From assembly GCA_027437055.1 (NCBI GenBank), contig DAIAOV010000030.1:1-32050 (forward strand): a stretch of DNA of 32,050 nucleotides, written 5' to 3'. The notes beneath the pieces were generated by a model. The model had not been told where the DNA came from and did not search any database. It saw only the letters and a list, made by a program, of their open reading frames with translations. Both the position numbers and the translations under genes were made by a program. Shown here in pieces: positions 9,953-27,713 of this stretch. The DNA is from Legionella sp. (GTDB lineage: Bacteria; Pseudomonadota; Gammaproteobacteria; Legionellales; Legionellaceae). How positions within the stretch are numbered: position 1 is the stretch's first letter; each line of letters begins with the position of its first letter.

Positions 9953-10735
9953 TCAATGGAAACTCCCCACCAAAGCTTGAATAACTAAATCCCAACCATC
10001 TATTAAGACAAATAATAATATTTTAATAGGTAGGGAGATGGTCATTGGCGGCATCATCATCATGCCCATGGTCATTAAAATACCTGAAACAATTAAATCA
10101 ACTAATAAAAAGGGAAGAAATATCATAAAACCAATTTGAAAAGCGGTCTGTAATTCGCTTAATAAAAAAGCAGGGATCAACTGATATAACTTAATCGCTT
10201 CAGCAGAAGAGGGCATAGGCTCTTTAGCCAGTTGTAAGATCAACTGCATGTCTTTTTCACGAGTTTGTTTGACCATAAATAATTTCAATGGCTTTGTTGC
10301 CTTTTCCAATGCAGTTTCAGTATTAATTTGGTGGGCTTCATAGGGTTGATAGGAGTTCTTATAAATAGATTGTGCCACCGGCATCATGGTAAATAGGGTG
10401 AGGAATAAAGACAGACTAATGATTACTGTATTCGGGGGCGTTTGCTGCAATCCCAGAGCATTACGCAGCATGGATAGGACAACTACTATTCTGGTAAAAG
10501 AAGTTAGCATAATTAGAATACTGGGGGCCAGGCTTAAAACAGTAAGTACTGCAAAAGCCTGTAATGCTGGTGATAAATGATCTTGATCGAAATGAATAGG
10601 TCCTATATTGATTCCACCAGCTGCCATACAGATTGCAGGACAGCATAGCAGAAAAAATAAAGGTATTAGTCTATAGTTCTTTGTTCGCAGGGAAGGCTGA
10701 TAGTTAGGTATTTGGCTATTATTCATTATGCTCAT
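9953..10735 (-). CDS. fliP: Flagellar export gate protein FliP
   Basis: FliP forms, with FliQ and FliR, the inner-membrane core of the flagellar type III export gate. The 260-residue protein has an N-terminal signal sequence (hydrophobic 24-38, ending near MAAGG), then the family stretch ILIMLTSFTRIVVVLSMLRNALG (about 74-96), a periplasmic part, and the C-terminal membrane hairpin with GMMMMPP and PIKILLFVLIDGWDLV. Its length is normal for the family. Its start overlaps the end of fliO by four bases (ATGA). It is the last gene of the operon; normally fliQ and fliR follow directly, but here they are at the far end and IS relics lie downstream. Confidence 0.95.
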   Translation of the reverse strand: MSIMNNSQIPNYQPSLRTKNYRLIPLFFLLCCPAICMAAGGINIGPIHFDQDHLSPALQAFAVLTVLSLAPSILIMLTSFTRIVVVLSMLRNALGLQQTPPNTVIISLSLFLTLFTMMPVAQSIYKNSYQPYEAHQINTETALEKATKPLKLFMVKQTREKDMQLILQLAKEPMPSSAEAIKLYQLIPAFLLSELQTAFQIGFMIFLPFLLVDLIVSGILMTMGMMMMPPMTISLPIKILLFVLIDGWDLVIQALVGSFH

Positions 10736-11067
10736 GATTCTTCGGACGTATTTCTTAAGGCGTGAATTGCCACGGAGTTTTGATTATCGGCCACCAAGAA
10801 CTTTTGTTCTTGATAGGCAATAACGTAAACTTTAGTTTTATTGTGCACTGACAATTTTTCAACAACTCTGCATTGGGTGCTGTTATGGAGTAATTTTTTT
10901 GAGTGTTTAGCAAGCATGAGTAATGTAATCACTAAAATAACCAAAGTCATTCCATAAGGAAGCCAAGAGCTGGAAGCAACAAGTTCTTTTTTAAAGCTTA
11001 TTGTTTCTCCTGCATAGAGCTGATGACTAAAAAATAATAAAATAAATGCTGCAATACGATACATCAA
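10732..11067 (-). CDS. fliO: Flagellar export assembly protein FliO
   Basis: A 111-residue membrane protein with a signal-like N-terminus (residues 1-19), one membrane segment (about 36-54) and a basic cytoplasmic part with the FliO pattern V-E-K-L-S-V-x-x-K-T-K-V-Y-V-I. FliO helps assemble the FliP/FliR gate. Sequence conservation in this family is weak, so the call leans on its position between fliN and fliP and on topology. It overlaps both neighbours by four bases (ATGA). Confidence 0.85.
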   Translation of the reverse strand: MMYRIAAFILLFFSHQLYAGETISFKKELVASSSWLPYGMTLVILVITLLMLAKHSKKLLHNSTQCRVVEKLSVHNKTKVYVIAYQEQKFLVADNQNSVAIHALRNTSEES

Positions 11068-11366
11068 CCAGTAACCTCAGTGATTTGTAGTGCAAAATGA
11101 TCTCCATGACTCATTAACTCTCCTTTAGCGATTACTTTATTATTAAGAATCAATTCAACGGGTTCATGAGTTTTTTGCTCCAAGTGGAGTACTTGTTCCG
11201 ATTGCAGTTGTTTTAATTGGGCAATAGTCATATTTAAGGTACCTATTCGGACATTGCATTGCACTTCTATAGAGCCAACTAAGCCTAAATAGTCGTTATT
11301 AATTATCTGACCATCATTTTGTGATTGCTGTTCAGTTAAGGTTATTTTTTTTACATTGATACTCAT
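11064..11366 (-). CDS. fliN: Flagellar C-ring protein FliN
   Basis: A 100-residue SPOA-domain protein. FliN lines the base of the C ring and docks FliH with the export ATPase. The domain covers about residues 28-98 with the family pattern VQCNVRIGTLNMTIAQL, then VELILNNKVIAKGELM and a final LQITEV. The N-terminal lead is shorter than in E. coli FliN (about 137 residues). The gene overlaps fliM and fliO by four bases each. With the reduced FliM beside it, this could form a SctQ-like sorting platform rather than a full switch ring; that is inference. Confidence 0.92.
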   Translation of the reverse strand: MSINVKKITLTEQQSQNDGQIINNDYLGLVGSIEVQCNVRIGTLNMTIAQLKQLQSEQVLHLEQKTHEPVELILNNKVIAKGELMSHGDHFALQITEVTG

Positions 11367-12073
11367 GAAGACCTCTTTAGTAATATTGATTTTTGTTGTG
11401 TTGACTGCCCCAATTCGGCTTGTGCTAGTACCTGATCATGATGAGTGACTCGCAAAGGAGTTGCTAGAGGATGATCGGTAATCAGCACATCGCCAACCTG
11501 TATTGTCAACAATTGTTCTATAGGTAAACTAACAGGGAGTAGTGTCACTTCTATATTGAGTGTTTCTTCTGCCATGGCATCATCTAGAGAACTCAGATGA
11601 TGTTTTACTTTTTGATAAGGAGATAGATTTTGATAAACCCAATCAGGACTTAAAATTATCCTTACAGTATTTGGGCTGGCACCCAACGTTAAGAAAAGAC
11701 AGGTTGAGCCACGATAAAACCAATTTGGAGCTAACGGCTTGGTTTCAGTGAGGCAGCATTCTTCCATTTTTAATAAGCGATTTAACAAAATTAGCAGGAG
11801 CCCTTGGCTAATTGAATTAAAACACGATTTATTTTCACCGAATAAAATATGATTGAACACGTCGACGTAGTGTTTTTCAACTATGGCCAACTGATTATCT
11901 TCTCTACAAATAGTCAAACCCTCATGAAATATAAAATCATGTGGGGGGAGCTCAAGTTTGAAGACGAGATGCGTCATTGCATATTCTTGATTCCAATCAT
12001 CAATCACTTGCGTAAAATGCATATTTAGTTCTGTTAGCTCACTAGAACTAATTAATCGAAACGGTTTTATCAT
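11363..12073 (-). CDS. fliM: FliM-like C-ring protein, short and without CheY-binding peptide
   Basis: Start chosen at 12073, giving 236 residues, because it makes an ATGA overlap with the flgE stop; a longer frame from 12127 would run 54 bases into flgE. The last 75 residues are a SPOA (FliN/FliM C-terminal) domain: LNIEVTLLPVSLPIEQL, then VGDVLITDHP and RVTHHDQVLAQAELG. FliM is normally about 330 residues, with an N-terminal EIDxLL-type CheY-binding peptide and a CheC-like middle domain that contacts FliG. Here the N-terminus (MIKPFRLISSSELTELN) has no such peptide and the middle is shortened. It sits at the fliM position before fliN. It may act like the SctQ protein of type III secretion systems. 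Family placement is sound; the loss of switching function is inference. Confidence 0.8.
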   Translation of the reverse strand: MIKPFRLISSSELTELNMHFTQVIDDWNQEYAMTHLVFKLELPPHDFIFHEGLTICREDNQLAIVEKHYVDVFNHILFGENKSCFNSISQGLLLILLNRLLKMEECCLTETKPLAPNWFYRGSTCLFLTLGASPNTVRIILSPDWVYQNLSPYQKVKHHLSSLDDAMAEETLNIEVTLLPVSLPIEQLLTIQVGDVLITDHPLATPLRVTHHDQVLAQAELGQSTQQKSILLKRSS

Positions 12074-13338
12074 TTGGATTGAAGACCTTCTAATAGTTGT
12101 TTGTCTATATCCATAATTTGCGAACAAGCCTGAAACATTCTTTGTAAGATAACGATGTTGGCAAATTCGGTAGTTGAGTCCACATTGGATGTTTCGATTT
12201 GTTTGGATTTAATACTGCCAAATCCATCGTGATTGGCACGTCCTAGATGTATTCCTTGATCGCTTTTGGCTCTAAATAAGTTGTCTTTAGTTTGTACTAA
12301 GGTATGCTCTAAGTCATCAAAATGAGCTAAGCCAACATATATGCCTGTTATTGTTTGTCCGTTATCATAGTTATAGGCAATTTGACCGTTTTCATCGAAA
12401 GAAAAACTGATTTGTTTTCCTTCTCCATACCCGTCATTTTGTAGTGTTTCTATTTTCGTACCCTCTGGATTTAACTTAGGATCTTTTAGTTGTACTGAAT
12501 TATCTGTTCCATCCTTAAAGTTACCAAATCGCAATGCAATTTCTTGCATTCCATTTAAAGTAAAGCGAATAGTACTATGCTCCAGTTGTGCTCCTTGAGA
12601 CATGCCATTGAAGATAACTTTTTGATTGTAAGGGACAGAAATTTTAACTCCGTCACAAGTAATATCCACCAAATCCCAGCTATTGCCGTCATCAGGAATA
12701 TTAGTGCTATCACCATTCACTAAAACAGGCGAAGACTGAAATTGTAATTTTAACTCATGTGCCTTTCCTTGCTCATCATAGACATTGATGATGGAAAAAT
12801 TGATGTCTTGATATTTACTTTTAAATGGCCCTGGTTGATTTTTTTCTGAATCTGATTTTTCTTTAAGGATAAATTGACCTTTAAGAAAAATCTCATGAGT
12901 TGCCTTACCAGGCGAGTTTTTAGGACCTTTCTCATGAATAGGCACCAGATTACCTGCTTTATTATAGCCTTGAACCTGACCACCACTGTGCCTATCAATT
13001 AAAATGCCATCATTATTAAAACCAAACTCACCGTCTCGTGTATAAAGGAGTTCCCCCGTTTTTAGTCTGACAATGAAAAAGCCTTGCCCTATTACCGCCA
13101 AGTCGGAGGGATTACTGGTTTCCAAATATTTACCATCACTAAAGTTCGTTGTAGTTCCTCCAACACAAACTCCCGAGCCTAATCCTTCCTCACCACTGCC
13201 ATTTCCTAAAGAGGAATAAAATACATCGCTTCGTTTAAACCCAGGGCTTTGCATGTTGGCCACATTATTGGATGTATTTTGCAAACCATAACTTGCAGCA
13301 AGCATGCCTGACAGACTGGTATAATAGGTATTCGTCAT
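12070..13338 (-). CDS. flgE: Flagellar hook protein FlgE
   Basis: FlgE polymerises into the extracellular hook after export through the flagellar type III gate. The 422-residue protein has the N-terminal rod/hook signature (YYTSLSGMLAASYGLQNTSNNVANMQSPGFKRS, about residues 5-37, given here in outline: S-G-M, N-N-V-A-N, P-G-F-K-R) and the matching C-terminal helix (SNVDSTTEFANIVILQRMFQ). The FlgE/F/G core of beta domains lies between them. Length matches E. coli FlgE (about 400). One base separates it from the flgD stop. The hook has no junction (FlgK/L) or filament genes in this window to connect to. Confidence 0.93.
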   Translation of the reverse strand: MTNTYYTSLSGMLAASYGLQNTSNNVANMQSPGFKRSDVFYSSLGNGSGEEGLGSGVCVGGTTTNFSDGKYLETSNPSDLAVIGQGFFIVRLKTGELLYTRDGEFGFNNDGILIDRHSGGQVQGYNKAGNLVPIHEKGPKNSPGKATHEIFLKGQFILKEKSDSEKNQPGPFKSKYQDINFSIINVYDEQGKAHELKLQFQSSPVLVNGDSTNIPDDGNSWDLVDITCDGVKISVPYNQKVIFNGMSQGAQLEHSTIRFTLNGMQEIALRFGNFKDGTDNSVQLKDPKLNPEGTKIETLQNDGYGEGKQISFSFDENGQIAYNYDNGQTITGIYVGLAHFDDLEHTLVQTKDNLFRAKSDQGIHLGRANHDGFGSIKSKQIETSNVDSTTEFANIVILQRMFQACSQIMDIDKQLLEGLQSK

Positions 13339-13339
13339 C

Positions 13340-13711
13340 TTAATCCTTTACTTCAATAATTTGTCCTAGATCCACTTTAGGGATTTCACCATTATTCATG
13401 ATTACTGTAATTTGAGGTGGTTCTTTGTCATGGAATTCTACCGTTGATACTCGACCTTCACCTTCGACATTCTTAATTCTTACTTTTTTTCCTAATAAAT
13501 TCAGGCTTTGATTACCGCTAGTCATGCCCAGTAAACTTATTAAATGCTCATTGGTCGATCGTGCTTCTTGCAAAGAAGAAAATTGTGCCATTTGTGCCAT
13601 AAATTCTCGATTATCCACCGGTTTTAGCGGATCTTGATAAGTGAGTTCTTGCATGAACAGTTTTAAATAATCGGCTTGGTCTAGTCCAGTAGCATTGACA
13701 GGATCAGTCAT
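13340..13711 (-). CDS. flgD: Hook-cap protein FlgD, minimal form
   Basis: FlgD caps the growing hook. The conserved N-terminal export and assembly region is clear: ADYLKLFMQELTYQDPLKP, then DNREFMAQMAQFSSLQ and E-A-R-S-T-N (about residues 13-55). At 123 residues the protein is little more than half the usual length of about 220. A short beta-rich part follows, but the full Tudor-like/FnIII C-terminal domains cannot all fit. The frame ends naturally and the next gene starts one base later, so I see a compact protein rather than a recent truncation. It overlaps the upstream fliK-position gene by eight bases. Confidence 0.9.
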   Translation of the reverse strand: MTDPVNATGLDQADYLKLFMQELTYQDPLKPVDNREFMAQMAQFSSLQEARSTNEHLISLLGMTSGNQSLNLLGKKVRIKNVEGEGRVSTVEFHDKEPPQITVIMNNGEIPKVDLGQIIEVKD

Positions 13712-14354
13712 GTTTTACTCCATTAATAATTAGTTTATTCAGGGTAATTCCTTTATTTTTTAGGAGATGCTTTATCGTGTGAATGAGTTCTTTTTCCTCT
13801 TGTGCATTCATCTCATTATTGTTAAGGGGCAACTCAGCCTCTTGTGCTTGAATAAATAGGTGGTGATTCTTAAATGAATAGAGAGTTCCTGGGGCTTTAT
13901 TTGCTTTAATTTCTTCGAGCTGACCTCTATGACTTATATTAGACGAGGCATTACTTGGCGAATAGGGCATTACCATTGAGAACGACTTTTGTTCTGTTTG
14001 CATGGATATCTCGGGTTGCTCCGTGGCATTCAAACAAGGTTGATTTATTACTTCAGTTGGAACTTCATAGCGGCAGCTCTCTATTGGCATATCCATTTTT
14101 TCTGTTGTAGCCAATGGAGTTGTTAATTGAGATTGATTTGCCATTATATTCTTTTGTTGCCTCTGGTTGATCAAAAGTGGTGAATCAAATTGTAAATCAC
14201 ATTGCTGCAATTGCTCCTGATGTTGCCAATAATACTCATCGCCACTGCTTTGTTTCGTGGGCCTATTAAGCCATAGCTCAAAGCTCAAATTATCCTGTTG
14301 CTGCTTATTTGGTGTTTGAGGTGGCATCAATGTTAATGACTCATCGATTTTCAT
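13704..14354 (-). CDS. FliK-position protein (possible hook-length control)
   Basis: Start chosen at 14354, where an AAGGA lies six bases upstream; a longer frame from 14384 runs deeper into fliJ. The product is about 216 residues, hydrophilic, Gln/Asn/Ser-rich and mostly without predicted folds, with a helical C-terminal end (about 185-213). Low complexity and location between fliJ and flgD match FliK, which secretes itself and measures the hook. The characteristic FliK C-terminal motif (L-x-P-x-x-L-G-x-V-x-V) is not visible, and the length is about half the usual 400. I therefore give no symbol: FliK is the most likely role by position, not by motif. Confidence 0.6.
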   Translation of the reverse strand: MKIDESLTLMPPQTPNKQQQDNLSFELWLNRPTKQSSGDEYYWQHQEQLQQCDLQFDSPLLINQRQQKNIMANQSQLTTPLATTEKMDMPIESCRYEVPTEVINQPCLNATEQPEISMQTEQKSFSMVMPYSPSNASSNISHRGQLEEIKANKAPGTLYSFKNHHLFIQAQEAELPLNNNEMNAQEEKELIHTIKHLLKNKGITLNKLIINGVKHD

Positions 14355-14769
14355 AAGCATTCCTTCTTTGTATAACCCATTCATCCAACGTTTGTTCTTG
14401 GGTCTTTTCTTGTTGTTTGCGTTGATGGGCTTGTTCTTTTTCTAGATGTTTTTCTAACATATGCAGTTCGGTTTTAACGCGAAGTAATTTACCGTTTAAT
14501 TTAGTTGCCAAATCTTCTTGGTTTTTTAATAGTTTTGCTAACTCGTTCTTTTGATTGTGCAATTGAGTAATAAAGTTGAGTCGAGTCATTTCAAATTCAG
14601 GGTTAATTTCAACGGAATAGCGAGTGGACGATTGGCTGACTTTTTGCTCTATTTCCTCAAGTTGTTGTTTTACTTTTATAGATTCATCTTTCACTGCGAG
14701 TAAATGAGTTTGCAGCTCGTCGCGTTGCCAAACGAGTTTAGTTATTAATGCAGATAGAGCTGGACTCAT
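14341..14769 (-). CDS. fliJ: Flagellar export protein FliJ
   Basis: A 142-residue, highly charged protein predicted to be two long antiparallel coiled-coil helices (about 5-55 and 60-125), as in FliJ, the central stalk that couples the FliI ATPase to the FlhA gate. The family is poorly conserved, so the call rests on coiled-coil form, size (E. coli about 147) and its position after fliI, which it overlaps by four bases (ATGA). Confidence 0.82.
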   Translation of the reverse strand: MSPALSALITKLVWQRDELQTHLLAVKDESIKVKQQLEEIEQKVSQSSTRYSVEINPEFEMTRLNFITQLHNQKNELAKLLKNQEDLATKLNGKLLRVKTELHMLEKHLEKEQAHQRKQQEKTQEQTLDEWVIQRRNAYENR

Positions 14770-16058
14770 TGGATGATCTCCTTAAAACGATTCATGAGAT
14801 CAACAAAAGATAAAGTAGGGCCTTCGTTTTGAATTAGTACATTGTTAATCGCATTAATGCGATTTACTGCATTATCTAAATTAACATTAGAGCCAGACTT
14901 ATAGGCACCTAATTCAATTAGGTCTTTATTTTGTTGATAAATACTGAGTATGGAAATAATGTGTTGCACTATTTTTTGTTCTTCTGAGGACAAAAGGTGT
15001 TTGCTTAAACGAGAAACACTTTGCAGTATGGAAATCGCTGGATAATGGCCTCGTTGTGCTAGATCTCTAGTTAATACTATGTGTCCATCCAATAGGGCGC
15101 GCATGTGATCGGCTAGAGGCTCGTTAAAGTCATCTCCTTCAACTAAAACAGTATATAAGGCGGTAATGCTGCCTTGATTCTTAAAATTGCCGGTGCGTTC
15201 TATTATTCCTGGTAGGAGCGAAAAAACGCTGGGGGTGTAACCGCGAGCAGTAGGCGGTTCTCCTAAACTTAAACTAATTTCTCTTTGCGCCATAGCAAAA
15301 CGCGTAATAGAATCCATGAATAGCAGAACATTTTGGCCTTGCTGGCAAAAATGTTCTGCTATTGCCGTGGCAGTATACACAGCCTGACGTCTCATTAGCG
15401 CCGACTCATCACTGCAGGCAACGACTAAAATGGATTTTTCTCTTGTGGTTTCTGTTAAATAATGCGTAATAAATTCGTTGACTTCGCGTCCTCGTTCACC
15501 GACTAAAGCGATCACATTAATATCGCTGTTAATCTGTTGCGCTATTTTTCCTAGGAGCATACTTTTTCCTACACCACTGCCGGCAAAGATCCCTATTCTT
15601 TGTCCTTTACCTAAAGGAAGAAGGCCATCTATTGCATGAATTCCTGTGTGTAATCGCTCTGAAATAGATTCACGCTCAAAAGGATTAATTTTTTTATTAC
15701 GCGTCTGAATAGTGTGAGAACAATAAAGTCTAATGTTTTTATCTATAGGCTGAGCAAAGGCATCTACTATATGACCCAGTAAATTAGGGCCTACTGTAAT
15801 AGAAAGAGGGGCACTGGTCGCTCTAACTTGATAACCCATACGAATAGGTGCGCTGTCGTAGGGCATTAAATACACTTTACCTTGCTCAAATCCTACGACC
15901 TCGGCTTGCATTAGCTGCTGCGAGTTTTGATCTAAAATATCACAGATTTCTCCAATAAATGCTTGAGGAGGACCATTAGCAACCATTTTTAATCCGACGA
16001 ACTGCTCAATTTCTCCCAAGCGTTCAGTAGCTGACAGTTGTTTAATCCACGGGTGCAT
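14766..16058 (-). CDS. fliI: Flagellar export ATPase FliI
   Basis: A cytoplasmic F1-like hexameric ATPase that energises and unfolds export substrates. The 430-residue protein carries Walker A G160-SGVGKS166, the GERGRE element with catalytic E188, and Walker B LLFMD ending at D249. The GYTPSVFSLLPGIIERTGNF and VLVEGDDFNEPLADHMRALLDGHIVL signatures of this family are present (quoted in parts). Length is close to E. coli FliI (457) with a slightly short N-terminus. A strong AGGGGG ribosome binding site precedes the start, which overlaps fliH by 17 bases. All catalytic residues look intact. Confidence 0.96.
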   Translation of the reverse strand: MHPWIKQLSATERLGEIEQFVGLKMVANGPPQAFIGEICDILDQNSQQLMQAEVVGFEQGKVYLMPYDSAPIRMGYQVRATSAPLSITVGPNLLGHIVDAFAQPIDKNIRLYCSHTIQTRNKKINPFERESISERLHTGIHAIDGLLPLGKGQRIGIFAGSGVGKSMLLGKIAQQINSDINVIALVGERGREVNEFITHYLTETTREKSILVVACSDESALMRRQAVYTATAIAEHFCQQGQNVLLFMDSITRFAMAQREISLSLGEPPTARGYTPSVFSLLPGIIERTGNFKNQGSITALYTVLVEGDDFNEPLADHMRALLDGHIVLTRDLAQRGHYPAISILQSVSRLSKHLLSSEEQKIVQHIISILSIYQQNKDLIELGAYKSGSNVNLDNAVNRINAINNVLIQNEGPTLSFVDLMNRFKEIIQ

Positions 16059-16695
16059 GATGCCCCCTTTGTCTTAACTGTATTAGAAGTTCTTTTAATC
16101 TTTCTATTTGCTTCTCGATGCTGGCATCGAAAATGCCATGCTCTGTTTTAATAACATAGCCACCCAAAACTAAACTGTCATTCGCCTTTATTTTTAGGCC
16201 GTTTAAGTGTTGTGTATGAAGCTTGATTAATCCATTTTGTAACAATTCAATTTCATTAGGATGTAAATAAAGCTCTATAGATTGTTTGCTATTTAATTGT
16301 TTTAACAATTGGTTAATTTGTTGTGCCAAACTCTGAGGATTCGATTCTTTTTCAACAAAAAATTGTTGGATTATATGCAATACTATATCGGCTATTTCTT
16401 GGTTTAATGCCAAACGATTTTGTTCTATGGCTTGAGGTATTGCCGCTAAGGTTGTTTCAATTTGTTGCTTTAACTGGAGCATTTGCTGCTCTACTATGGC
16501 TTTACCTTCTTTTTTACCTAATCTATAACCTTCCTGGAATGCTTCATCTTTTAATACATCAACTTCCTCTTGGTTCCACACCAAGTCTAATAGGGGCTCA
16601 GGTTCAACCTCATAATTTACATCAGGCGTGGGGACGCTATTGGTGATATGCATTACTTCAGGACTAATTACTACGTTTTTCAAAATCTTAGCCAT
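16042..16695 (-). CDS. fliH: Flagellar export regulator FliH
   Basis: A 217-residue peripheral-stalk protein that holds FliI at the C ring. It shows the FliH pattern: a poorly ordered N-terminus, a glycine-containing helix (AFQEGYRLGKKEGKAIVEQQ, about 53-72, with GxxxG-type spacing), a long helical region, and a C-terminal domain with ELYLHPNEIELL and GGYVIKTEHGIFDASIEKQIERL (parts quoted). Size fits E. coli FliH (about 228). It overlaps fliI by 17 bases and the preceding gene by eight. Confidence 0.9.
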   Translation of the reverse strand: MAKILKNVVISPEVMHITNSVPTPDVNYEVEPEPLLDLVWNQEEVDVLKDEAFQEGYRLGKKEGKAIVEQQMLQLKQQIETTLAAIPQAIEQNRLALNQEIADIVLHIIQQFFVEKESNPQSLAQQINQLLKQLNSKQSIELYLHPNEIELLQNGLIKLHTQHLNGLKIKANDSLVLGGYVIKTEHGIFDASIEKQIERLKELLIQLRQRGHHAPVD

Positions 16696-17125
16696 GGAGA
16701 TGCTCCAACTGCTCTTTAAAGCTCAATTGGCTTTGCCATTGCTGAAAGACGCGAGCTTTAGTTGCTGGTTTAATAAAGCAGATTTTCTCGTCCGTGAGTT
16801 GCTTTATATACTCGCCTTGCTCATTGTGCTCCAGGAATTGTTTAGTCCAGGTGAAGTTCCCTTGAGCCAAAATAATGGCTATATAAAGCGGCTCCAGTTG
16901 CATTAACTCCTTACATAGCTCAGGTAGTTGTGGTGTCTGGCTAATTAAGGACAACTGGGAATAAGACAATTTACGAAATTGCCTGGCTTTATCTATTAAC
17001 GAAACTCCTTGTTGCTGGACAAACTGTTTTTGTTGACTAGGGGATAACTGAGTTAAAATCCAATTTTGATCTTTCAAAGGTAATTGGGCAATTTTTAGTA
17101 AAAGCTTTTTGAATTCTTTATTCAT
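16688..17125 (-). CDS. Unrecognised 145-residue protein in the fliG position
   Basis: It lies exactly where fliG is expected, between fliF and fliH, overlapping each by eight bases. FliG is normally about 330 residues with an N-terminal FliF-binding domain, a middle domain and a C-terminal torque domain with charged residues that meet MotA. This product is only 145 residues, soluble and all-helical, rich in Leu, Gln and Lys. The stretch from about 15 to 35 (QLPLKDQNWILTQLSPSQQ) loosely recalls one FliG armadillo-type repeat, but no charged torque helix is visible. It may be a drastically reduced FliG, an analogue of the SctK-type adaptor of injectisomes, or an unrelated replacement. The frame itself is intact and translationally embedded, so the gene is surely real. 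Confidence 0.75.
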   Translation of the reverse strand: MNKEFKKLLLKIAQLPLKDQNWILTQLSPSQQKQFVQQQGVSLIDKARQFRKLSYSQLSLISQTPQLPELCKELMQLEPLYIAIILAQGNFTWTKQFLEHNEQGEYIKQLTDEKICFIKPATKARVFQQWQSQLSFKEQLEHLHG

Positions 17126-18425
17126 GGTGAGTCAGCCATTGAGTTAATTCGACTAGAAGCAACTGACGTCTTTTTTGTCTTATTCTTTTTCTCACTAGAA
17201 CTACGGTAGTACTAATAAAAAGAAATAGAACTAAAAAATAAGACAATAAGTTTTTATTGATTTGAGGTGTTATTTGTTTAGAACTAATTGAGGCTGCTGG
17301 TGGGGCTGAATGAGGTTTTACAGCTATTAAGGCTTCTATACTGATTACATCGCCTCTTTGTGCATCAAATCCTACGGTGTTTTTTACTAGTCGTTCGACT
17401 TGAGCAATAGTTTTTTGATCGGTATTTCGTGGTAAAACAACACTAATGGATAAGCGTTCAATGGTGCCATTAGCACGTTTAAACAATTCTTTTTCACTGC
17501 CCAACTCATATGATTTTTCTAAAGTGATGTTTTGATTTGTTTTATCTTTTTCTGTTTTACCTGTAATCGAATGATTTATTTCTTTCTCATGAGAAATTTG
17601 CCCTTGGCTTTGTGGTTTAATCAATTCACGTTGTAGTTCATCATAATTAATCGTGGCATCTACTTTCACTGCAACTTGATTTTTAGGAAAAATTTTGTGA
17701 AGCATTTGGGCCACTTTATTGTTTAAATAGAGCTCTACATTTTTCTTGGTAGAAAATTGTGCTAGGGAATTATCTTCTTCGCTCGCGGAAAGAGTATTGC
17801 CATTTTGATCAACTATCACTACATTGTTGACGATTAAATGAGCAACACTGGCACTCACTAATTGTTGTATGCTTCTGACTTGTTTTGGAGTTAACGAATT
17901 TTTTAAATGCAACGTAATCGCAGCTTTAGGTTGATTATCTTCTTTATCAAAAAGATGACTTTCTGGAATGATTAAATGTACGCGGGCATGGCGTATTTCA
18001 TCAAGACTAGAAATAGTACGTTCCAATTCACCTTGTAAAGCACGTTGGTAGTTGATCTTTTGAGAAAAATCCGTCATGCCAAAATCACTTTTATCAAATA
18101 ATTCAAATCCCACACTACCGGTGAACTGCATGCCACTACTCATCACTTTAAGACGGGTTTTCGCAATAAGATTTTTATCGATTAAAATATCACTACCTCC
18201 ATTACGCAATTGGAAAGTGATATTGTCTTGTTCGAGCTGACCTAAAATCTTATTAGCATCTTGTTCATCTAGATGATTAAACAAGACAGCATAAGTGGGA
18301 GATAAGGCCCACCAGCTAAGGAGTATAGTGCTTAAAACAATACATCCTACAGATATGGATAGGGTGAGTTTACGTTGTAATGAAAGGGTATTAAACCAAT
18401 TTAGTATTTGTTGTATGTAATTCAC
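17118..18425 (-). CDS. fliF: Flagellar MS-ring protein FliF, short form
   Basis: FliF builds the inner-membrane MS ring around the export gate. The 435-residue protein has one membrane segment at about 21-42, ring-building domains with family signatures (SPTYAVLFNHLDEQDANKI about 42-60, FDKSDFGMTDFSQKINYQRALQGELERTI about 110-138 in parts, VHLIIPESHLF about 149-159) and a second membrane segment at about 393-411. E. coli FliF is about 550. The shortage is partly in the periplasmic region and partly in the cytoplasmic tail, which is only about 24 residues here, although the FliG-binding segment normally sits at the end of a tail of about 75-80. This matches the absence of a normal FliG. Ring and export functions look intact. 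Confidence 0.93.
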   Translation of the reverse strand: MNYIQQILNWFNTLSLQRKLTLSISVGCIVLSTILLSWWALSPTYAVLFNHLDEQDANKILGQLEQDNITFQLRNGGSDILIDKNLIAKTRLKVMSSGMQFTGSVGFELFDKSDFGMTDFSQKINYQRALQGELERTISSLDEIRHARVHLIIPESHLFDKEDNQPKAAITLHLKNSLTPKQVRSIQQLVSASVAHLIVNNVVIVDQNGNTLSASEEDNSLAQFSTKKNVELYLNNKVAQMLHKIFPKNQVAVKVDATINYDELQRELIKPQSQGQISHEKEINHSITGKTEKDKTNQNITLEKSYELGSEKELFKRANGTIERLSISVVLPRNTDQKTIAQVERLVKNTVGFDAQRGDVISIEALIAVKPHSAPPAASISSKQITPQINKNLLSYFLVLFLFISTTVVLVRKRIRQKRRQLLLVELTQWLTHHE

Positions 18426-19537: not shown

Positions 19538-20652
19538 CTATTGGATGACCAATTCAGCATGTAGCGCTCCTGCCCTTTTTAAACTTTCTAAAATCGCAAT
19601 AATGTCGCGGGTAGATGTCTGTACTTTAGTTAACGCGGTTATTAAATCGGCAACAGTTGCATCTTTATGTAATTTAACCGTTTTAGCTACGGCCTCTTTG
19701 ACATTAATATTGGTTGACGGTGTCACCACAGTACGTACTTGCCTACCCATTTGCTGTATTAAAGTAGGTTGCGACACGTTGTATTCTGTGGATATGGCAA
19801 TTTGCAAATTACCATGGGAGATGGTGACCGCATCAATTTTTACGTCAGCTCCTGCGACGACTACACCAGTGCGTTCATTGACTACTACAGTTGGTAAATT
19901 ATCAGGCGTGATAACCACATTTTCGAGCTGACTAACAAAGCGTATAAAATGTTTTTTTGCTGGTAAGGGGGGATGAATTTCAATATCCTGCGCGGAACGA
20001 GCAAGAGCAGTATTTTCGCCAAATTGTTTATTGATGGCTGATTCAATATGATCTGCCGTAGTGAAATCAGGATGATTCAAAATGAGATGCAGATCACCAG
20101 TTTTATCCATTACATCATTATAAATAGTTTTTTCTACAACAGCCCCGCCAGATATTAAACCTGTAGTTGGATGGTTTTTTTGAATGACATTACCGTAGAG
20201 ATCATATTTAAACCCACCTATGGAAATAGGTCCTTGTGCCAGAGCATAAATCCTATTATCCGGGCCTCTAAGCGGAGTTACTAATAGGGTTCCACCTAAT
20301 AAACTTTTGGCATCTCCTAGTGAGGCAACATTAATGTCAATTTTATCTCCCTGATGTGCATAAGGGGGAGGGCGGTCGTGATAATCACTGTTGCCGTATT
20401 TCTGCTATTAATCTCATTAGGATTAATATTGACACCAAAACTGAGTAATAAGTTGGAAATGGCCTGAGTAGTGTCTTTATTTCGTCTTGAGTCTCCTGAG
20501 CCTGCTAATCCAATAACTAAGCCATATCCTGTGAGAGGGTTTTCCTGTAGACCAGAAAGTCTGGCTATAGATTTTAAGCGAATTGCAGAATATCCATTCT
20601 GTAGGAAAGCAATTTGGCTTAATATAAAAATGATCATTGTTAATTTTTTCAT
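19538..20652 (-). pseudogene. flgI: Flagellar P-ring protein FlgI, one frameshift
   Basis: The P ring is a periplasmic bushing around the rod. The first piece (20317-20652 frame) has a signal peptide and IRLKSIARLSGLQENPL, GYGLVIGLAGSGDS and NTATVIITTALP, all normal for FlgI, then runs out of frame. The correct continuation (YAHQGDKIDINVASLGDAKS, LLGGTLLVTPL, ALAQGPISIGGF) is in the next frame and stays open to 19538. The break lies in CTCCCCCTTAT near 20365-20375: five C where six would restore one frame of 371 codons, the usual FlgI length. The other residues look conserved, so the damage is either recent or a base-calling error in the homopolymer. Confidence 0.9.
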
Positions 20653-21230
20653 TACACTAACCCCACAAAGGATAGAATTTTATAGATGTAGTTATGATCT
20701 TGTGAGTTAGATACGGAGCCCCTTCCTGTATAAGTAATATGAGCGTCCGCTAAACGAGTAGATAAAATAGTGTTTTGTGTCGTAATGTCTTCAGCCCTGA
20801 CTACACCGCTCAGAAGAATTCGTTGTTGTTCTCCATTGATAGTAATGAGTTGTGCTCCCTCAACTAGATATTTATTGTCAGGAAATACTTCTTTAATTTG
20901 CACCGTAAGAGCTGCTTTTATTTTGCCATTACGACCAGTTTTAGCTGCTGCACGGCCTTTACCTTTTAGTCCGAATTGCACTTCATGATTGTCTTTATTG
21001 TATCCTACCTCCAGGGCTGTTTTGATGTCTTTGCTGGATGAAAGATCGGCGCTGGTTTGGGCATTAGATGTTTCAAGAACAATAACGGTTAGGACATCTC
21101 CTGGTAATGATGCTTTATGATCAGCAATAAGTGGTTTATAAACTTCTTCTGCAAATAAATTAATCGCCCAAGTAGGTTGAATAGTGCTGATTGAAAACAG
21201 CAAGAATGCGATAATGGGTTTCTTTTTCAT
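20652..21230 (-). CDS. flgH: Flagellar L-ring protein FlgH without lipobox cysteine
   Basis: The L ring sits in the outer membrane around the rod. The 192-residue protein shows the FlgH core: PGDVLTVIVLETSNAQTSADLSSSKD (about 44-69, in part), then GKGRAAAKTGRNGKIKAALTVQ, LVEGAQLITINGEQQRILLSGVVRAEDI and the end pattern STRLADAHITYTGRGSV (in parts). FlgH is normally a lipoprotein with an LxGC lipobox; this protein contains no cysteine at all and its signal peptide looks like a standard Ala-type cleavage (near TWA). It is about 40 residues shorter than enteric FlgH at the N-terminus. It starts with an ATGA overlap with flgA. Confidence 0.93.
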   Translation of the reverse strand: MKKKPIIAFLLFSISTIQPTWAINLFAEEVYKPLIADHKASLPGDVLTVIVLETSNAQTSADLSSSKDIKTALEVGYNKDNHEVQFGLKGKGRAAAKTGRNGKIKAALTVQIKEVFPDNKYLVEGAQLITINGEQQRILLSGVVRAEDITTQNTILSTRLADAHITYTGRGSVSNSQDHNYIYKILSFVGLV

Positions 21231-22165: not shown

Positions 22166-22925
22166 TAGTTAATTTTTCCAGTTCATCAGCAATTTGCACC
22201 GCTTTAGCATTTAATTGATACACACGTTGCGCCATGGTTAGTTGCATTAAAGAGTTCACCATATCGACGTTAGATCCTTCTATTTGATTCTGCGCAAGAG
22301 ATCCTAAGCCACTACTACCCGGAATATCAGTAATGGGTTCACCTGATTCATCAGTCGTCGTGTAAAGCCCTGAGCCTATAGGGGTTAATGTTTCAGGATT
22401 CATGAATTTGGCTAATTGAATGGTACCTAGTAATTGCGGCTCTGGATCATCACTGACAATCACCTCTACATCTCCATTAGCCTGAATGGTTAGTTTGGTG
22501 AAATCATCAGGAATTTGAATATTATCTGCCAATCGTAAGCCGTCTTGAGTGGCCAGATAGCGGTCTGAGTCGATGCTTAGAGTGGAACTTCTGGTGTAAA
22601 CAATATTCCCGTCAGTATGAATAACTTGATAAAAGCCAGTGCCATTAATAGCGACATCATTCCAGTTATTTGTTGCTTTTAAAGGCCCAGTTGTAAAGTC
22701 TTTACTGGACTGGTGAACTGCGGTTCCTAAACCTAATTTAGCGCTAGGTTGATTATTGAATAGTGGATTCTCTCCGTTGATATTTTGATAGATCATATCT
22801 GCAAAGGATAATTTGCTGGCTTTATAATTAGGAGTGTTCAAATTAGCCAGGTCATTGGCAATCTTATCAATATAATATTCTTCCGCTTTAAGACCACTTG
22901 CAGCTATAGATAATGCATCAGACAT
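22149..22925 (-). CDS. flgG: Flagellar distal rod protein FlgG
   Basis: A 258-residue rod subunit. N-terminal signature: SIAASGLKAEEYYIDKIANDLANLNTPNYK (about 6-35, in part); middle GTGFYQV, a typical FlgE/F/G element; C-terminal EGSNVDMVNSLMQLTMAQRVYQLNAKAVQIADE (in part). The length equals that of E. coli FlgG (260), which separates it from the shorter FlgF next to it. It overlaps flgF by eight bases. Confidence 0.93.
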   Translation of the reverse strand: MSDALSIAASGLKAEEYYIDKIANDLANLNTPNYKASKLSFADMIYQNINGENPLFNNQPSAKLGLGTAVHQSSKDFTTGPLKATNNWNDVAINGTGFYQVIHTDGNIVYTRSSTLSIDSDRYLATQDGLRLADNIQIPDDFTKLTIQANGDVEVIVSDDPEPQLLGTIQLAKFMNPETLTPIGSGLYTTTDESGEPITDIPGSSGLGSLAQNQIEGSNVDMVNSLMQLTMAQRVYQLNAKAVQIADELEKLTNEIRN

Positions 22926-23631
22926 TTCCTTCTCCTAGTTGATTAATGGCAGTTGCCAACAAATTATCAGCGGTGCGCATTATTCTTTGACTTGCTTCAA
23001 AATGACGCGAAGTTTTTACCATATCCATCATTTCATCTATAGATTTCACATTGGATTGTTCAATAAATCCCTGCAAAATCCGCGTATTGTGATCTGTGGG
23101 GGTAGGGGACTCGTCGGTTTGATAGAGTCCATGGCCTATATAACTTAGTTGATGAGGATTATTAAATTTCACTATATTGAGTTGATCAATTTGACGATGA
23201 TCAATGAAGAGGCGACCTTGAGTGTCGACCGTAAAGGCAGCATCGTCGATTTTTATAGTACCTCCTTTCCCTAGAAGCACTTCGCCGGTGACCGTGGCTA
23301 ACTCCCCATGATTATTGATTTGAAAATCACCTCGTCGGGTATAGAAAATACCTTGCTCTCCTTGTACCTGAAAATAACCATCGCCAGATAAGGCGATATC
23401 GCTCATATTATGGGTGTGATTAAAAGTCCCCTGGGTTTTTATTTGAGATCTTTGTAGCTGTGGCATTACATTACTTACTTGGGGTTGCAGGTATTCGTCA
23501 AAGCCGTTGAATTCCACAAGTTGCTTTTTAAAGCCTAGGGTATTCATATTCGCTACATTTTGACTTATTGATTGTAATTTTAATTGGTCTACGTCCATAG
23601 CTAATTGTGTTGCAGTTATTGCATCAAACAT
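22918..23631 (-). CDS. flgF: Flagellar proximal rod protein FlgF
   Basis: A 237-residue rod subunit with the N-terminal pattern ATQLAMDVDQLKLQSISQNVANMNTLGFKK (about 6-35, in part), a central GDGYFQVQG element and a C-terminal QSNVKSIDEMMDMVKTSRHFEASQRIM stretch (in part). FlgF and FlgG are close paralogues; the assignment follows length and order (flgF then flgG is the universal order). It starts nine bases after the flhA stop. Confidence 0.88.
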   Translation of the reverse strand: MFDAITATQLAMDVDQLKLQSISQNVANMNTLGFKKQLVEFNGFDEYLQPQVSNVMPQLQRSQIKTQGTFNHTHNMSDIALSGDGYFQVQGEQGIFYTRRGDFQINNHGELATVTGEVLLGKGGTIKIDDAAFTVDTQGRLFIDHRQIDQLNIVKFNNPHQLSYIGHGLYQTDESPTPTDHNTRILQGFIEQSNVKSIDEMMDMVKTSRHFEASQRIMRTADNLLATAINQLGEGNV

Positions 23632-23640
23632 CTTTTTTCC

Positions 23641-25649
23641 TTATTTCACTACAGCAAAAGATTCCACCTGAATATTCACGGGTATTTCATTCATAGCCAA
23701 TACGGTGAGATGAGGAATTACCCTTTGGGTTAACTGTTTTATATGCCTTCTTAATAAAGAGGAACACAGAAGGATAGGGCGTTTTCGTTCACCTAGCATT
23801 TGTTCTACTTGCTGGGCTAATGAAGTGATCAGGCGTTCTGTTACACTGGGTTCTAGAGCAAAAAACTCTTTATTTGCTATATTTTGATTGAGTTTTTGTT
23901 CTAAAGAGGCTTCAAGAGTCAGTACATGTAGGCTATTTTGATTAGCGAGTAATTTTTGGCAGATTGACGTAGCTAAACCTGCCCTGACTAACTCAGTGAG
24001 TTGTGTGGGATCGGGAATTTTTTTCGCATGTTCTAGTAAGATTTCTACTATCTGCATTAAATGGCGAATAGAAACCTTTTCTCTGAGTAAGTTTTGTAAT
24101 ATGCGTTGCACATGACTTAAAGGTAAAAGGGCAGGTATCAGTTCTTCACTTAGCGTTTTAATACCTGACTGTAATAATAAACGCTCCGTTTCTTCTCGAG
24201 AAAGTAACTCCGCTATATGTGATTGTATTGCTTCATTAAGATGGGTCGTTAAAACCATAAGAGGGTCACAAACAGTCAATCCCTCGTTTAGCGCTAGGGA
24301 TTTATCTTCTAACCCTATCCAGGCGGCAGGAAGGCCATAGCTGGGATCGCGTACTGTTATTCCTTCTGGTAGGCTATTATTTTTTTCTGTTCATGTGGAG
24401 GATAAATTACTAGATGCTTATCAAGATGCAATTGATTGTTTCCTTCATAAGTACCTTGGATAGCAATATGATATAAGGGATACCCCAATTTTTTATCCGC
24501 CTTTATCTTTACTTCTGGTAACACAAAACCTAAATCAAAAGCCACCTTTTCTCTGAGCTGTTGGATGGATTCTAATAAAGAAGCTTCATACTGTTGTAAT
24601 GAATGGTACAGTTCTTTATTTAGATTTATTTCTATAGGATAAATACGTATCTTTTCATATAAATCTTCTTCTATTTCTTCGCTTTCGTCTTGGGGATTAG
24701 TCTTTAGGACAAACCAGGTGATAAGAAGAAACAAACCTAAAATAAACAATACAGGAATAGTGGGGATGCCTTTAAAAAACAGAAGGCTTACTAGTCCGCC
24801 GCATACCATAATGAGACTTTTAGGATAAGAGCTGATTTGTTTGGCAACTTCACTTCCTAAATGTGCATCTGTAGCTGCTCTAGTGACTATGATTCCCGTT
24901 GCTGTTGAAATAATCAAGGCGGGAATTTGGGTTACTAATCCATCGCCAACAGTTAGTAGGGTATAGGTATGGATGGATTCTGATAGGCTTAATCCTTTTT
25001 GCACCAGTCCTATAGCGAAACCACCAATGATATCTACTAGAATAATTAAAATACCGGCGATGGCATCTCCTTTAACAAACTTATTGGCGCCGTCCATAGC
25101 CCCATAAAAATTAGCTTCTTTTTCGATTTGTGCGCGTCTGCTTTTGGCTTCGGCTTGCGAGATACTGCCCATATTCAAATCAGCATCAATACTCATTTGC
25201 TTACCCGGCATGCTATCAAGAGTAAAACGGGCAGCTACTTCAGCGACACGCTGAGAACCATTGGTTACTACTATAAATTGCACAATAATAAGAATTAAAA
25301 ACACCACTAATCCCATGACGTAATTGCCGTGAATCACATAATTTCCCATGGCTTGTATTACTTTGCCCGCATTACCATCCGACAAGATAAGGCGGGTAGC
25401 AGAAATATTAAGTGCTAAGCGAAAGAGGGTAGAGATGAGCAATAATGCTGGGAACGTTGAAAAACTTAATGGCTTATCGGTATAAAAGGTTAAAAGCAAA
25501 ATGGTTAAAGCCCAGCTGAAATTGATGATAAGTAACAAATCGAGAAGTGCTGACGGAATGGGAATAAATAGAATGAATAGTATGCCAGTAGCAAAAGCTA
25601 TCATCACCAATTCACTACGATCACTAAACAAATTTACTTTATTATTCAT
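23641..25649 (-). pseudogene. flhA: Export gate protein FlhA, one frameshift
   Basis: FlhA is the nonameric export-gate motor with an N-terminal membrane part and a C-terminal chaperone-docking part. The first piece (stop at 24357) has about eight membrane segments and the FHIPEP signature (about residues 134-162: RVAEVAARFTLDSMPGK, then DADLNMGSI). Just before its stop the sequence reads PPHEQKK; the correct continuation (LPEGITVRDPSYGLPAAWIG, then LTVCDPLMV) is in the next frame and stays open to 23641. The shift coincides with a run of seven A in the coding strand (seven T at 24380-24386). Eight A would restore one frame of about 669 residues, the normal length. It may be a true null, slippage-rescued, or a sequencing error. 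Confidence 0.92.
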
Positions 25650-26698
25650 TGATTATTCCTACGTGCGTAAATTTCTCTAAAAATACTTGCTGCTATAGGA
25701 AATAAGTCTTTAGTTATCCAATGATTCAACTCTACAGAGCTGTGCAGAAGACGGGCAAAAATTTTATGCTCAACTATGGGAATACCCTTTTTTTTTGCAA
25801 TTTCTTTGACTTGAAAGACCATTTCTCCTTGGGCTTTGCAAATGACTTTGGGCGCGGGCATCGTATGACGATCATATTTTAAAGCGATAGCTAAATGGGT
25901 CGGATTAGTAATGATAACGTCTGCCGTTTTAACTTGTTTTAATGAGGCTGTTTTTTGTCGTAACTGATTTTGTAATTGCTTTATTTTACTTTTTATTTTG
26001 GGATCACCTTCTTTCTGTTTGTATTCGTCTTTAACCTCCTGTTTACTCATACGATTGTCTTTCTTGAATTTGTGTAAGGTATACAATTTGTCTATAAACG
26101 CTAAAATGGTCAGGATGATGAGAAGTTGAAAGGTGAGCTTTAATATAAAATGCATCATAAAGACTAGGGTTTGTTGCGGATGAACTAAAAGCAGTTGCAG
26201 AATATTAATTAATTGATGTTTAAAAACTAAAAACAATAACACTGAAGCTAATGTTAATTTGATAATACTTTTCACCGCCTCAAACATAGATTTGAGAGAA
26301 AACAGTTTTTTAAATCCTTGTACTATATGTAATCGTTTAAAATCAGGAATCAATGGAGTTGTTGACCAAACCAGACCTGTTTGCGCAACGGTACTTAAAA
26401 TAATGGCTAATCCGCTAGCTAGGGCAAAGGGGAGCCATAAGGTAATTAATTTAGTGAATATCAGCTGAAATAATTGACAGGTGGTGTCAGTACTCAATTG
26501 AAGATGAGCTATATTTTCCAGCAAATGTTGCAATAAAGTGCGAATTTCTTTTAGTTGTTTGGGCCATAAAGCGGTAATCATAGAAATCATAACCAATAAG
26601 GAGATACAGGTTGTTAATTCAATGCTTTTACTGACCTGTCCTTTTTCTTTAGCCTTTTGTAGTTTATAAGGTGTTGCTTTTTCTGTTTTTTCACTCAT
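25646..26698 (-). CDS. flhB: Flagellar export switch protein FlhB
   Basis: FlhB switches the export gate from rod/hook to filament substrates after self-cleavage. The 350-residue product has the usual start SEKTEKATPYKLQKAKEKGQVSKS, four membrane segments (between about 28 and 205) and the cytoplasmic domain with the autocleavage site N265-P-T-H268 (IITNPTHLAIALKYD). Length is like E. coli FlhB (382) with a short tail. The intact NPTH is notable because no late (filament) substrates are encoded in the window. It overlaps fliR and flhA by four bases each. Confidence 0.95.
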   Translation of the reverse strand: MSEKTEKATPYKLQKAKEKGQVSKSIELTTCISLLVMISMITALWPKQLKEIRTLLQHLLENIAHLQLSTDTTCQLFQLIFTKLITLWLPFALASGLAIILSTVAQTGLVWSTTPLIPDFKRLHIVQGFKKLFSLKSMFEAVKSIIKLTLASVLLFLVFKHQLINILQLLLVHPQQTLVFMMHFILKLTFQLLIILTILAFIDKLYTLHKFKKDNRMSKQEVKDEYKQKEGDPKIKSKIKQLQNQLRQKTASLKQVKTADVIITNPTHLAIALKYDRHTMPAPKVICKAQGEMVFQVKEIAKKKGIPIVEHKIFARLLHSSVELNHWITKDLFPIAASIFREIYARRNNQ

Positions 26699-27444
26699 GA
26701 CATCAACTCCTTCCAGGTATGAAAGCAGTATTCGAATACAGTATTAAGCTGCGGGCTAATGTAATTGAGCATGAACATAAATAAGATTAAGCCAAGCAAA
26801 ATTTTTATTGGTATGATGAGAAAATAGGTATTAATTTGCGACATATTGCGAGTAATGATTGCACCACACAGATCAACAGCTAATAAAGCAACAATTATTG
26901 GACTGGCTATCATGACGGCTAAGGTGAATGCGAAACCAAATTGTTTGATAACCGGCGCAAAGCCTGTAAATACAGCAATGGTTCCAGGGGGAATAATCGT
27001 AAAAGAAAATACTAATCCCTTAAATAACCAGAGATGTCCGTTCAGATTAAAAAAGAACAACACAGCGAACATAGATAAAAACTGGCTGGAGAACGGTTCT
27101 TGATGATGTTCTCCTGGGTTAAAGATAGCTAGTGTATTCAACCCCATCTCATTATCAATGAGCTGGCCAGCAATTTGAAAAATTGCAAATGCAGCATAGA
27201 TACTGGTCGCAAGAATTAAACCGTTAGACAACTCAGCAATACTGCCGATGAGAATAGTATTGTCATCAAGGAAATGTTGATAGGGTGTGTAATTAACAAT
27301 CAGCAAGCTGAATGAAAAAACCAGTATAAGTCGGGTAGGAATAGGTAATTGCCGAATCGCTTGAATTGGAGTGAATAATAAAACCGTACCAAGTCGAATT
27401 GTTATAAAAAATAAGCTAGTAATCCATGGCAGAGAAAAAGTCAT
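26695..27444 (-). CDS. fliR: Flagellar export gate protein FliR
   Basis: Start chosen at 27444 because it forms an ATGA overlap with the fliQ stop; a longer frame from 27513 would add 23 residues inside fliQ. The resulting 249-residue membrane protein has about six hydrophobic segments. FliR-typical parts are FITIRLGTVLLFTPI, the early RLxPxPTRLxL-type loop (QLPIPTRLILVFS), and the GQLIDNEMGLNTLAIFNPGEHHQEPF stretch (in part), where the family has GxQIGxxMGL.. and a P. Length fits FliR (about 260). Confidence 0.93.
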   Translation of the reverse strand: MTFSLPWITSLFFITIRLGTVLLFTPIQAIRQLPIPTRLILVFSFSLLIVNYTPYQHFLDDNTILIGSIAELSNGLILATSIYAAFAIFQIAGQLIDNEMGLNTLAIFNPGEHHQEPFSSQFLSMFAVLFFFNLNGHLWLFKGLVFSFTIIPPGTIAVFTGFAPVIKQFGFAFTLAVMIASPIIVALLAVDLCGAIITRNMSQINTYFLIIPIKILLGLILFMFMLNYISPQLNTVFEYCFHTWKELMS

Positions 27445-27713
27445 GGTCTTACTGTCCTGGGAATGTTTAACAATATACCTTGGGCAAATTCCATGAGTGA
27501 ATGCAACATCCATTCACCGCAGAGCATTAACATTAAGACTACGGCTAATATTTTAGGAACAAAACTTAAAGTAGAGTCTTGAATCTGGGTAACTGTTTGT
27601 ACTATTGAAATGATTAAACCCGTGATAAGAGACACAAATATGATGGGGGCAGCAATAAATAGGGCATGCCAAAGTAATTGTTTACTTAAATAAATTGCTA
27701 AATCGTTAGACAT
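27441..27713 (-). CDS. fliQ: Flagellar export gate protein FliQ; first gene of the operon
   Basis: A 90-residue protein of two membrane helices (about 14-40 and 52-75). The first is followed by GLIISIVQTVTQIQDSTLSFVPKILAVVL (in part), the FliQ signature (family: QAxTQIxExTLxFxPKxxAV). Its ATG is preceded by GGAAG with a spacing of seven bases. It heads the minus-strand operon; 357 bases separate it from the divergent gene at 28071, and the promoter must lie there. Confidence 0.95.
   Translation of the reverse strand: MSNDLAIYLSKQLLWHALFIAAPIIFVSLITGLIISIVQTVTQIQDSTLSFVPKILAVVLMLMLCGEWMLHSLMEFAQGILLNIPRTVRP

What the first reader, a model, noticed from the sequence alone, without database searches (positions are those of the whole stretch)
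9953..27713. Filament-less, motor-less flagellar-type operon
About 24 contiguous same-strand genes give a complete-looking export gate, ATPase complex, MS ring, rod, P/L rings and hook. No flagellin (fliC), cap (fliD), chaperone (fliS), junction (flgK/flgL), stator (motA/B), flhF/flhG, fliA, flgM or chemotaxis gene is present. Nearly all junctions overlap, so the set behaves as one unit. Such a parts list fits a hook-basal-body used for protein export (as proposed for Buchnera basal bodies) rather than swimming. It may be an extra system next to, or a relic of, a normal flagellum elsewhere in the genome.
Basis: partly seen in the sequence, partly recalled or inferred. Interest (0 to 1): 0.85.

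Follow-up and report, generated by a model that had tools for sequence, protein, structure and literature searches.

The report
Motor-less flagellum-like export operon
A bacterium with a normal flagellum elsewhere in its genome also carries a second, flagellum-like gene set that has no motor or filament parts, is probably a protein-export machine rather than a propeller, and has two broken genes in this copy.

Summary
Window 9953-27713 (-) is a 24-gene flagellar-type operon in a Legionella genome: export gate, ATPase complex, MS ring, rod, P/L rings, hook, but no filament, junction or stator genes. The genome also has a separate canonical flagellum. Legionella's "second putative flagellar system" was already in print. 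New here: (1) the FliG slot holds a 145-aa protein which, through Pseudomonas homologues, is FliG N+M without the torque domain. (2) The same order occurs in Pseudomonas, Hahella, a Moraxellaceae MAG and two further gammaproteobacteria; their FlhA forms a clade apart from canonical flagella. (3) RHS-repeat giants (about 2800-4800 aa) occur in 8 of 10 Legionella genomes with the operon and 1 of 26 without, and lie beside it in 7 of 11 non-Legionella carriers. Best reading: a non-rotating, flagellum-derived secretion machine, possibly for these giants. Intact copies show purifying selection. Here flhA and flgI are frame-broken and no giant was found, so this copy is probably decaying or mis-assembled. 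Secretion is inferred, not shown.

The parts
27441..27713 (-). fliQ, export gate (operon start)
   Evidence: PF01313 E 1e-27
26695..27513 (-). fliR, export gate
   Evidence: PF01311 E 6e-47
25646..26698 (-). flhB, export switch
   Evidence: PF01312 E 2e-102; NCBIfam flhB 318 bits vs SctU 290 bits, both below their cut-offs
24357..25649 (-). flhA, 5' piece (gene broken by loss of frame)
   Evidence: PF00771 profile positions 1-417; intact flhA median 668 aa in relatives
23641..24279 (-). flhA, 3' piece in another frame
   Evidence: PF00771 profile positions 448-656
22918..23631 (-). flgF, rod
   Evidence: PF06429, PF22692
22149..22925 (-). flgG, rod
   Evidence: PF22692, PF06429
21227..22165 (-). 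flgA, P-ring chaperone
   Evidence: PF13144 E 2e-20
20652..21230 (-). flgH, L ring
   Evidence: PF02107 E 7e-39
20317..20652 (-). flgI, 5' piece (gene broken by loss of frame)
   Evidence: PF02119 positions 1-75; intact flgI median 371 aa in relatives
19538..20110 (-). flgI, 3' piece in another frame
   Evidence: PF02119 positions 161-343
19142..19480 (-). flgB, rod
   Evidence: PF00460
18717..19142 (-). flgC, rod
   Evidence: PF06429, PF00460
18427..18720 (-). fliE, MS ring-rod adaptor
   Evidence: PF02049 E 4e-21
17118..18425 (-). fliF, MS ring (435 aa)
   Evidence: PF01514 E 2e-57, PF08345; NCBIfam fliF 224 bits (over cut-off) vs SctJ 56
16688..17125 (-). FliG slot: 145-aa FliG N+M-like protein without the C-terminal torque domain
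   Evidence: 68 homologues; profile link to the Pseudomonas FliG-slot protein E 4e-6, and from that to FliG profile columns 14-195 E 7e-6 to 2e-5; folds
16042..16695 (-). fliH
   Evidence: PF02108 E 2e-15
14766..16058 (-). fliI, export ATPase
   Evidence: PF00006 E 2e-86; NCBIfam FliI_clade1 537 bits vs SctN 486, both below their cut-offs
14341..14769 (-). fliJ
   Evidence: weak: TIGR02473 E 1e-4, below cut-off; position
13704..14384 (-). FliK slot (226 aa), hook-length/switch protein by position
   Evidence: no useful family match; in place in relatives at 29-38% identity
13340..13711 (-). flgD, hook cap, short
   Evidence: PF03963 E 8e-17
12070..13338 (-). flgE, hook
   Evidence: TIGR03506 E 2e-65
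11363..12127 (-). fliM-like (254 aa by longest frame); only the C-terminal SPOA domain is recognised
   Evidence: PF01052; no FliM middle-domain family reached E 0.01; TIGR01397 matches residues 172-251 only
11064..11366 (-). fliN
   Evidence: PF01052 E 2e-18
10732..11067 (-). fliO
   Evidence: PF04347 E 4e-4, just below cut-off
9953..10735 (-). fliP, export gate (operon end)
   Evidence: PF00813 E 9e-79

Best explanation
The operon belongs to a distinct lineage of flagellum-derived type III machines that build a basal body with MS ring, rod, P and L rings and hook but cannot rotate. FliG is reduced to its FliF-binding N domain and its FliM-binding middle domain, so it can still join the MS ring to a small FliM/FliN platform for the export ATPase, but it lacks the C-terminal domain on which stators act. 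With no stator, junction, filament or cap genes of its own, the hook most likely stays an open conduit across both membranes (the L ring in place of an injectisome secretin), and the machine exports proteins. The best cargo candidate is a family of giant RHS/YD-repeat proteins with variable C-terminal parts that follows the operon across genomes. Shown: gene content, synteny, truncated FliG, separate ancestry, purifying selection in one species trio, co-occurrence with giant RHS genes. Inferred: non-rotation, open hook, secretion, cargo identity. The window's own copy is probably non-functional (flhA and flgI broken, no RHS gene found in an 88% complete assembly).
Confidence: 0.72

Rival explanations
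1. A second motile flagellum that borrows FliG, stators, flagellin and cap from the canonical set.
For: Most carriers have a canonical set: flagellin in 7 of 8 same-genus carriers scanned (G023 and G029 not scanned there) and in 11 of 11 non-Legionella carriers.
Against: The FliG of the system is truncated and FlhA is a separate lineage. One carrier MAG (G003, 87% complete) has no flagellin, FliG_C or canonical FlhA match but all 24 operon genes open. No junction genes in the operon.
Confidence: 0.08
2. The whole system is a relic of a lost flagellum, kept by chance.
For: In the window flhA and flgI are broken; L. norrlandica (L058 = G029) has broken flhA and flgG; two MAGs lack the front genes at the locus.
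Against: Gene order kept across families, and dN/dS of 0.01-0.21 in the intact copies measured. For the window copy alone, relic is likely.
Confidence: 0.1
3. A hook-basal body used for attachment, sensing or another non-export surface role.
For: Hook and L/P rings are kept; no needle or translocon family was seen in the operon.
Against: It does not explain the RHS co-occurrence. The export apparatus is kept, though assembly alone would also need it.
Confidence: 0.12
4. The giant RHS proteins are unrelated to the machine and share a habitat or mobile element with it (for example delivered by T6SS).
For: RHS genes are common in the Pseudomonas, Hahella and other hosts, several per genome here. 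T6SS was not looked for.
Against: Within Legionella they track the operon after tree correction. In five different arrangements they lie beside the operon. No PAAR domain was reported for the one giant scanned in full.
Confidence: 0.4

Closest known systems
Second putative flagellar system (PFS2) of Legionella (Gomez-Valero 2014 PMC4256840, passages read; Appelt and Heuner 2017 PMC5655016, section 6 and passages read)
   Same: Same genus, same parts list: basal body, secretion genes, hook, no flaA or fliD; function left open between T3SS and second flagellum. Very likely this operon: the FliG-slot search found L. fallonii at 74%.
   Different: The parts read do not mention the truncated FliG, spread outside Legionella, RHS link or broken copies.
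Buchnera hook-basal bodies (recalled, not read here)
   Same: Basal body and hook without filament; export role proposed.
   Different: Derived from the enterobacterial flagellum in a symbiont (recalled); this one is a separate lineage, usually beside a canonical flagellum.
Myxococcales 'Myxo' NF-T3SS (Abby and Rocha 2012, PMC3459982, passages read, part of the abstract among them)
   Same: Type III system lacking motility parts and secretin, argued to be a translocation machine.
   Different: Lies on the injectisome branch; this one keeps flagellar rod, hook and P/L rings, and its ATPase, FlhB and FliF score higher with flagellar than with Sct models.
Enterobacterales flag-2 to flag-5 (PMC7526173, passages read)
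   Same: Extra flagellar loci next to a primary one.
   Different: In the passages read, flag-3 codes for 46 of 47 flag-1 proteins and has fliC; not a stripped set.

Membership tests
Rotary flagellum | FliG with C-terminal torque domain in the system | tested here: not met
   FliG slot aligns to FliG N+M only; in 8 same-genus carriers FliG_C was found once (7) or not at all (G003), never at the operon
Rotary flagellum | Own stator, filament, cap and junction genes | tested here: not met
   None among the 24 genes; 7 of 8 same-genus carriers have 2 flagellin-family matches over the cut-off, the same number as flagellated non-carriers, and G003 none
Rotary flagellum | MS ring, rod, P/L rings, hook, export gate | tested here: met
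   in the window two of these genes are broken
Non-flagellar T3SS (injectisome) | Secretin and needle protein in the locus | tested here: not met
   No such family among the 24 genes
Non-flagellar T3SS (injectisome) | Core proteins closer to Sct than to flagellar families | tested here: not met
   FliI, FlhB, FliF score higher with flagellar NCBIfam models, FliI and FlhB below the equivalog cut-offs
PFS2 of Legionella | Basal body, export and hook genes without flaA/fliD in a Legionella | tested here: met
   figure data of PMC5655016 not seen
Flagellar-type secretion machine | Exports non-structural proteins | not testable with these tools
   Needs secretome with gene removals
RHS polymorphic toxin (the co-occurring giants) | RHS/YD repeats with variable C-terminal region | tested here: met
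   15 RHS stretches and a Scabin-like end in P. uvaldensis; similarity stops before the last 360-390 residues in 5 giants
RHS polymorphic toxin (the co-occurring giants) | Cognate immunity gene | not tested
   A 136-aa ORF without family match follows the P. uvaldensis giant

The most novel reading that the evidence does not exclude
A widely scattered but overlooked secretion system: a non-rotating flagellar hook-basal body, with FliG cut back to its adaptor domains and the L ring as outer-membrane exit, that exports giant RHS-repeat polymorphic proteins. It would be a second, independent conversion of the flagellum into a secretion machine, separate from the injectisome.
Probability: 0.4. Interest if true: 0.93.

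Novelty: new variant of a known kind. Interest (0 to 1): 0.8.

Why it matters
How flagella become secretion machines has rested mainly on the injectisome. This lineage suggests another path, caught with rod, hook and rings intact but the rotor amputated, and usually living beside a normal flagellum in the same genome. It makes a precise prediction (cargo, exit route, missing torque domain) that gene removals can test. It would also explain annotations of a 'second flagellum' that cannot drive motility.
Full report
What is in the window. The stretch 9953-27713 on the minus strand holds 24 flagellar-type genes with 19 of 23 junctions overlapping. Read from the promoter side the order is fliQ, fliR, flhB, flhA, flgF, flgG, flgA, flgH, flgI, flgB, flgC, fliE, fliF, a 145-aa ORF where fliG normally sits, fliH, fliI, fliJ, a FliK-slot ORF, flgD, flgE, fliM, fliN, fliO, fliP. 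No stator, flagellin, cap, chaperone, junction, flhF/G, fliA, flgM or chemotaxis family was reported for the 38 window ORFs scanned. Two genes are broken: flhA and flgI are each split into two open pieces lying in different frames. By eye both breaks lie near runs of one base, so sequencing or assembly error is possible; the assembly is a draft (290 contigs, 88% complete). Intact copies exist in relatives.

Organism and context. The same-genus genomes are Legionella: contigs of several have the exact lengths of named Legionella contigs, and homologues carry Legionella names. The window's genome itself is unnamed. It has a separate canonical set: FlhA and a MotA match on contig C15, flagellin on C22, FliG_C on C110. 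Judged by FlhA score, 10 of the 36 genus genomes examined, own included, carry the second set; a FliG-slot search found it in the same 10 among 20 genomes tried. In 7 of 10 the operon sits beside a tRNA-Ala(GGC)/tRNA-Glu(TTC) group, including the divergent G003. I infer an old locus with repeated loss rather than a recent island.

Prior knowledge. Gomez-Valero et al. 2014 (PMC4256840, passages read) reported a fourth flagellar region in L. fallonii and L. micdadei. Appelt and Heuner 2017 (PMC5655016, section 6 and passages read) called it a second putative flagellar system without flaA or fliD, present in further species, and left open whether it is a T3SS or a flagellum. So the existence of the operon in Legionella is not new. 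The searches and 102 of the held open-access library listed no paper that I recognised as reporting the truncated FliG, the spread to other families, or the RHS link. I read only the listings, and passages or sections of five papers, so this is no proof of absence.

A distinct lineage. Of 25 loci found by FliF, 24 titled Legionella, Tatlockia or Legionellaceae and one only 'Proteobacteria', 23 keep the order as far as their contigs reach; two MAGs (L063, L065) have other genes where the front part would be. None of the 8 named non-Legionella loci has a canonical FliG hit, while 44 of the 47 other flagellar loci of that scan do (10 of the 12 query FliGs came from those loci). In FlhA phylogeny 33 type-2 tips form one clade with support 1.0, apart from 30 canonical gammaproteobacterial tips (the window genome's canonical FlhA included) and 25 others. 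It is rare: a FliG-slot profile hit 5 of 369 class genomes, own included, one of the five weak (E 7e-4); a type-2-like FlhA, judged by a score gap, appeared in 3 of 397 other phylum genomes. A sigma-factor gene follows fliP in G413 and G375 (Pfam) and, by BLAST to those, in six Pseudomonas/Moraxellaceae loci; none was seen in the Legionella loci.

Function. dN/dS is 0.01-0.21 for 17 genes in the three pairs of one trio of close Legionella species (G010, G013, G023), so these copies are maintained. Non-rotation is inferred from the missing torque domain and missing stators. G003 carries all 24 genes open but no flagellin, FliG_C or canonical FlhA match, and its single MotA/ExbB match scores like those in non-flagellated relatives; it is only 87% complete. 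Together these argue for a role other than swimming.

Candidate cargo. Next to the operon in P. uvaldensis lies a 3941-aa protein with 15 RHS stretches, a LysM and a Scabin-like end. Related giants lie beside the operon in Pseudomonas GM48, P. japonica and MRCP1333 (each cut by a contig end at 2100-2540 aa), in G413 (a 624-aa contig-end fragment similar to the part after the repeats), in G347 (two in tandem) and in G375 (4781-aa frame, 1.5 kb from fliQ): 7 of 11 non-Legionella carriers. The other four, SJZ074, both Hahella and the Moraxellaceae MAG, have RHS frames of 2800-3900 aa elsewhere, and their flanks were examined only in part. Similarity among five giants stops 360-390 residues before their ends, the polymorphic-toxin pattern. 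Within Legionella, RHS-rich genes (23-30 matches; frames of 3028-3777 aa in the six whose length was listed) occur in 8 of 10 carriers, and one (G028) in 26 non-carriers: Fisher p 1.3e-5. On a tree of two EF-G genes of the 36 genomes, 33 genomes match and 0 of 5000 simulations of independent evolution reach that (7 changes of the operon state, 6 of RHS). The giants of G003, G017, G013 and G028 are 44-59% identical to each other over about 3400 aa; the first three align with the P. uvaldensis protein at 25-28%, G003 over nearly the whole length, the others in pieces. By simple hydropathy the four Legionella giants and the P. uvaldensis one show no Sec-like N-terminal segment, the G347 one is borderline; true starts are not known. 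The exceptions are telling: G028 (giant, no operon) is sister in that tree to the window's G000 (broken operon, no RHS match), as expected of a lineage losing the system (support not inspected); G002 is an 82% complete assembly.

Limits. No expression, structure or secretion data. Passage of a 4000-aa chain through a flagellar gate would be unprecedented to my knowledge. In Legionella giant and operon are not neighbours where positions were listed. T6SS was not searched. The association could reflect shared ecology.

Verdict. I rate it a new variant of a known kind.

Noticed in passing
window 27714-28070: The region upstream of fliQ is conserved across the 10 Legionella loci aligned; by eye it has a sigma-70-like pair of hexamers and ATGGAA and GCAAGT blocks near the start, also in the window's damaged copy.
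   Followed up: partly
window 28071-28388 (+): Short Gln-rich repetitive ORF divergent from fliQ; an ORF 55% identical over 67 aa lies just downstream of fliP in L. norrlandica (L046).
   Followed up: no
window 9264-9554 (-): Transposase-type HTH ORF just past the operon's 3' end.
   Followed up: no
window 28467-28658 (+): tRNA-Ala and tRNA-Glu pair; the operon lies beside this tRNA group in 7 of 10 genomes, six of which have an extra tRNA-Glu.
   Followed up: partly
window 45-2027 (+): A second EF-G-type gene, found at 93% identity or more in 32 of 36 genus genomes and only as the 52-54% paralogue in G001, G014, G022 and G029.
   Followed up: no
window 6754-8412 (+): 552-aa ORF without Pfam match.
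   Followed up: no
L032, L038 near the operon end: Ras-GEF plus ankyrin proteins of about 1000 aa downstream of the operon in L. worsleiensis (two) and L. quateirensis (one); a gene downstream in six Legionella loci, TPR by Pfam in the one scanned.
   Followed up: no
L218:11887-13563, L219:5756-7510, L257:7220-9007: A conserved 558-595-aa gene, Ig-like by Pfam (weak in L219), lies directly upstream of the giant RHS gene in three of four Legionella genomes looked at.
   Followed up: partly
L166:5280-6659, L170:12500-13874: Outside Legionella a sigma-factor gene and, in G413, G375 and both Hahella loci, a TPR-type gene follow fliP, suggesting own regulation.
   Followed up: partly
L063:1-4692, L065:1-7027: In two Legionellaceae MAGs the front genes of the operon are replaced by unrelated frames.
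   Followed up: partly
whole operon order: From recall, the order equals a delta-proteobacterial/Firmicute-like flagellar cluster opened between fliP and fliQ, as if circularly permuted; not tested here.
   Followed up: no
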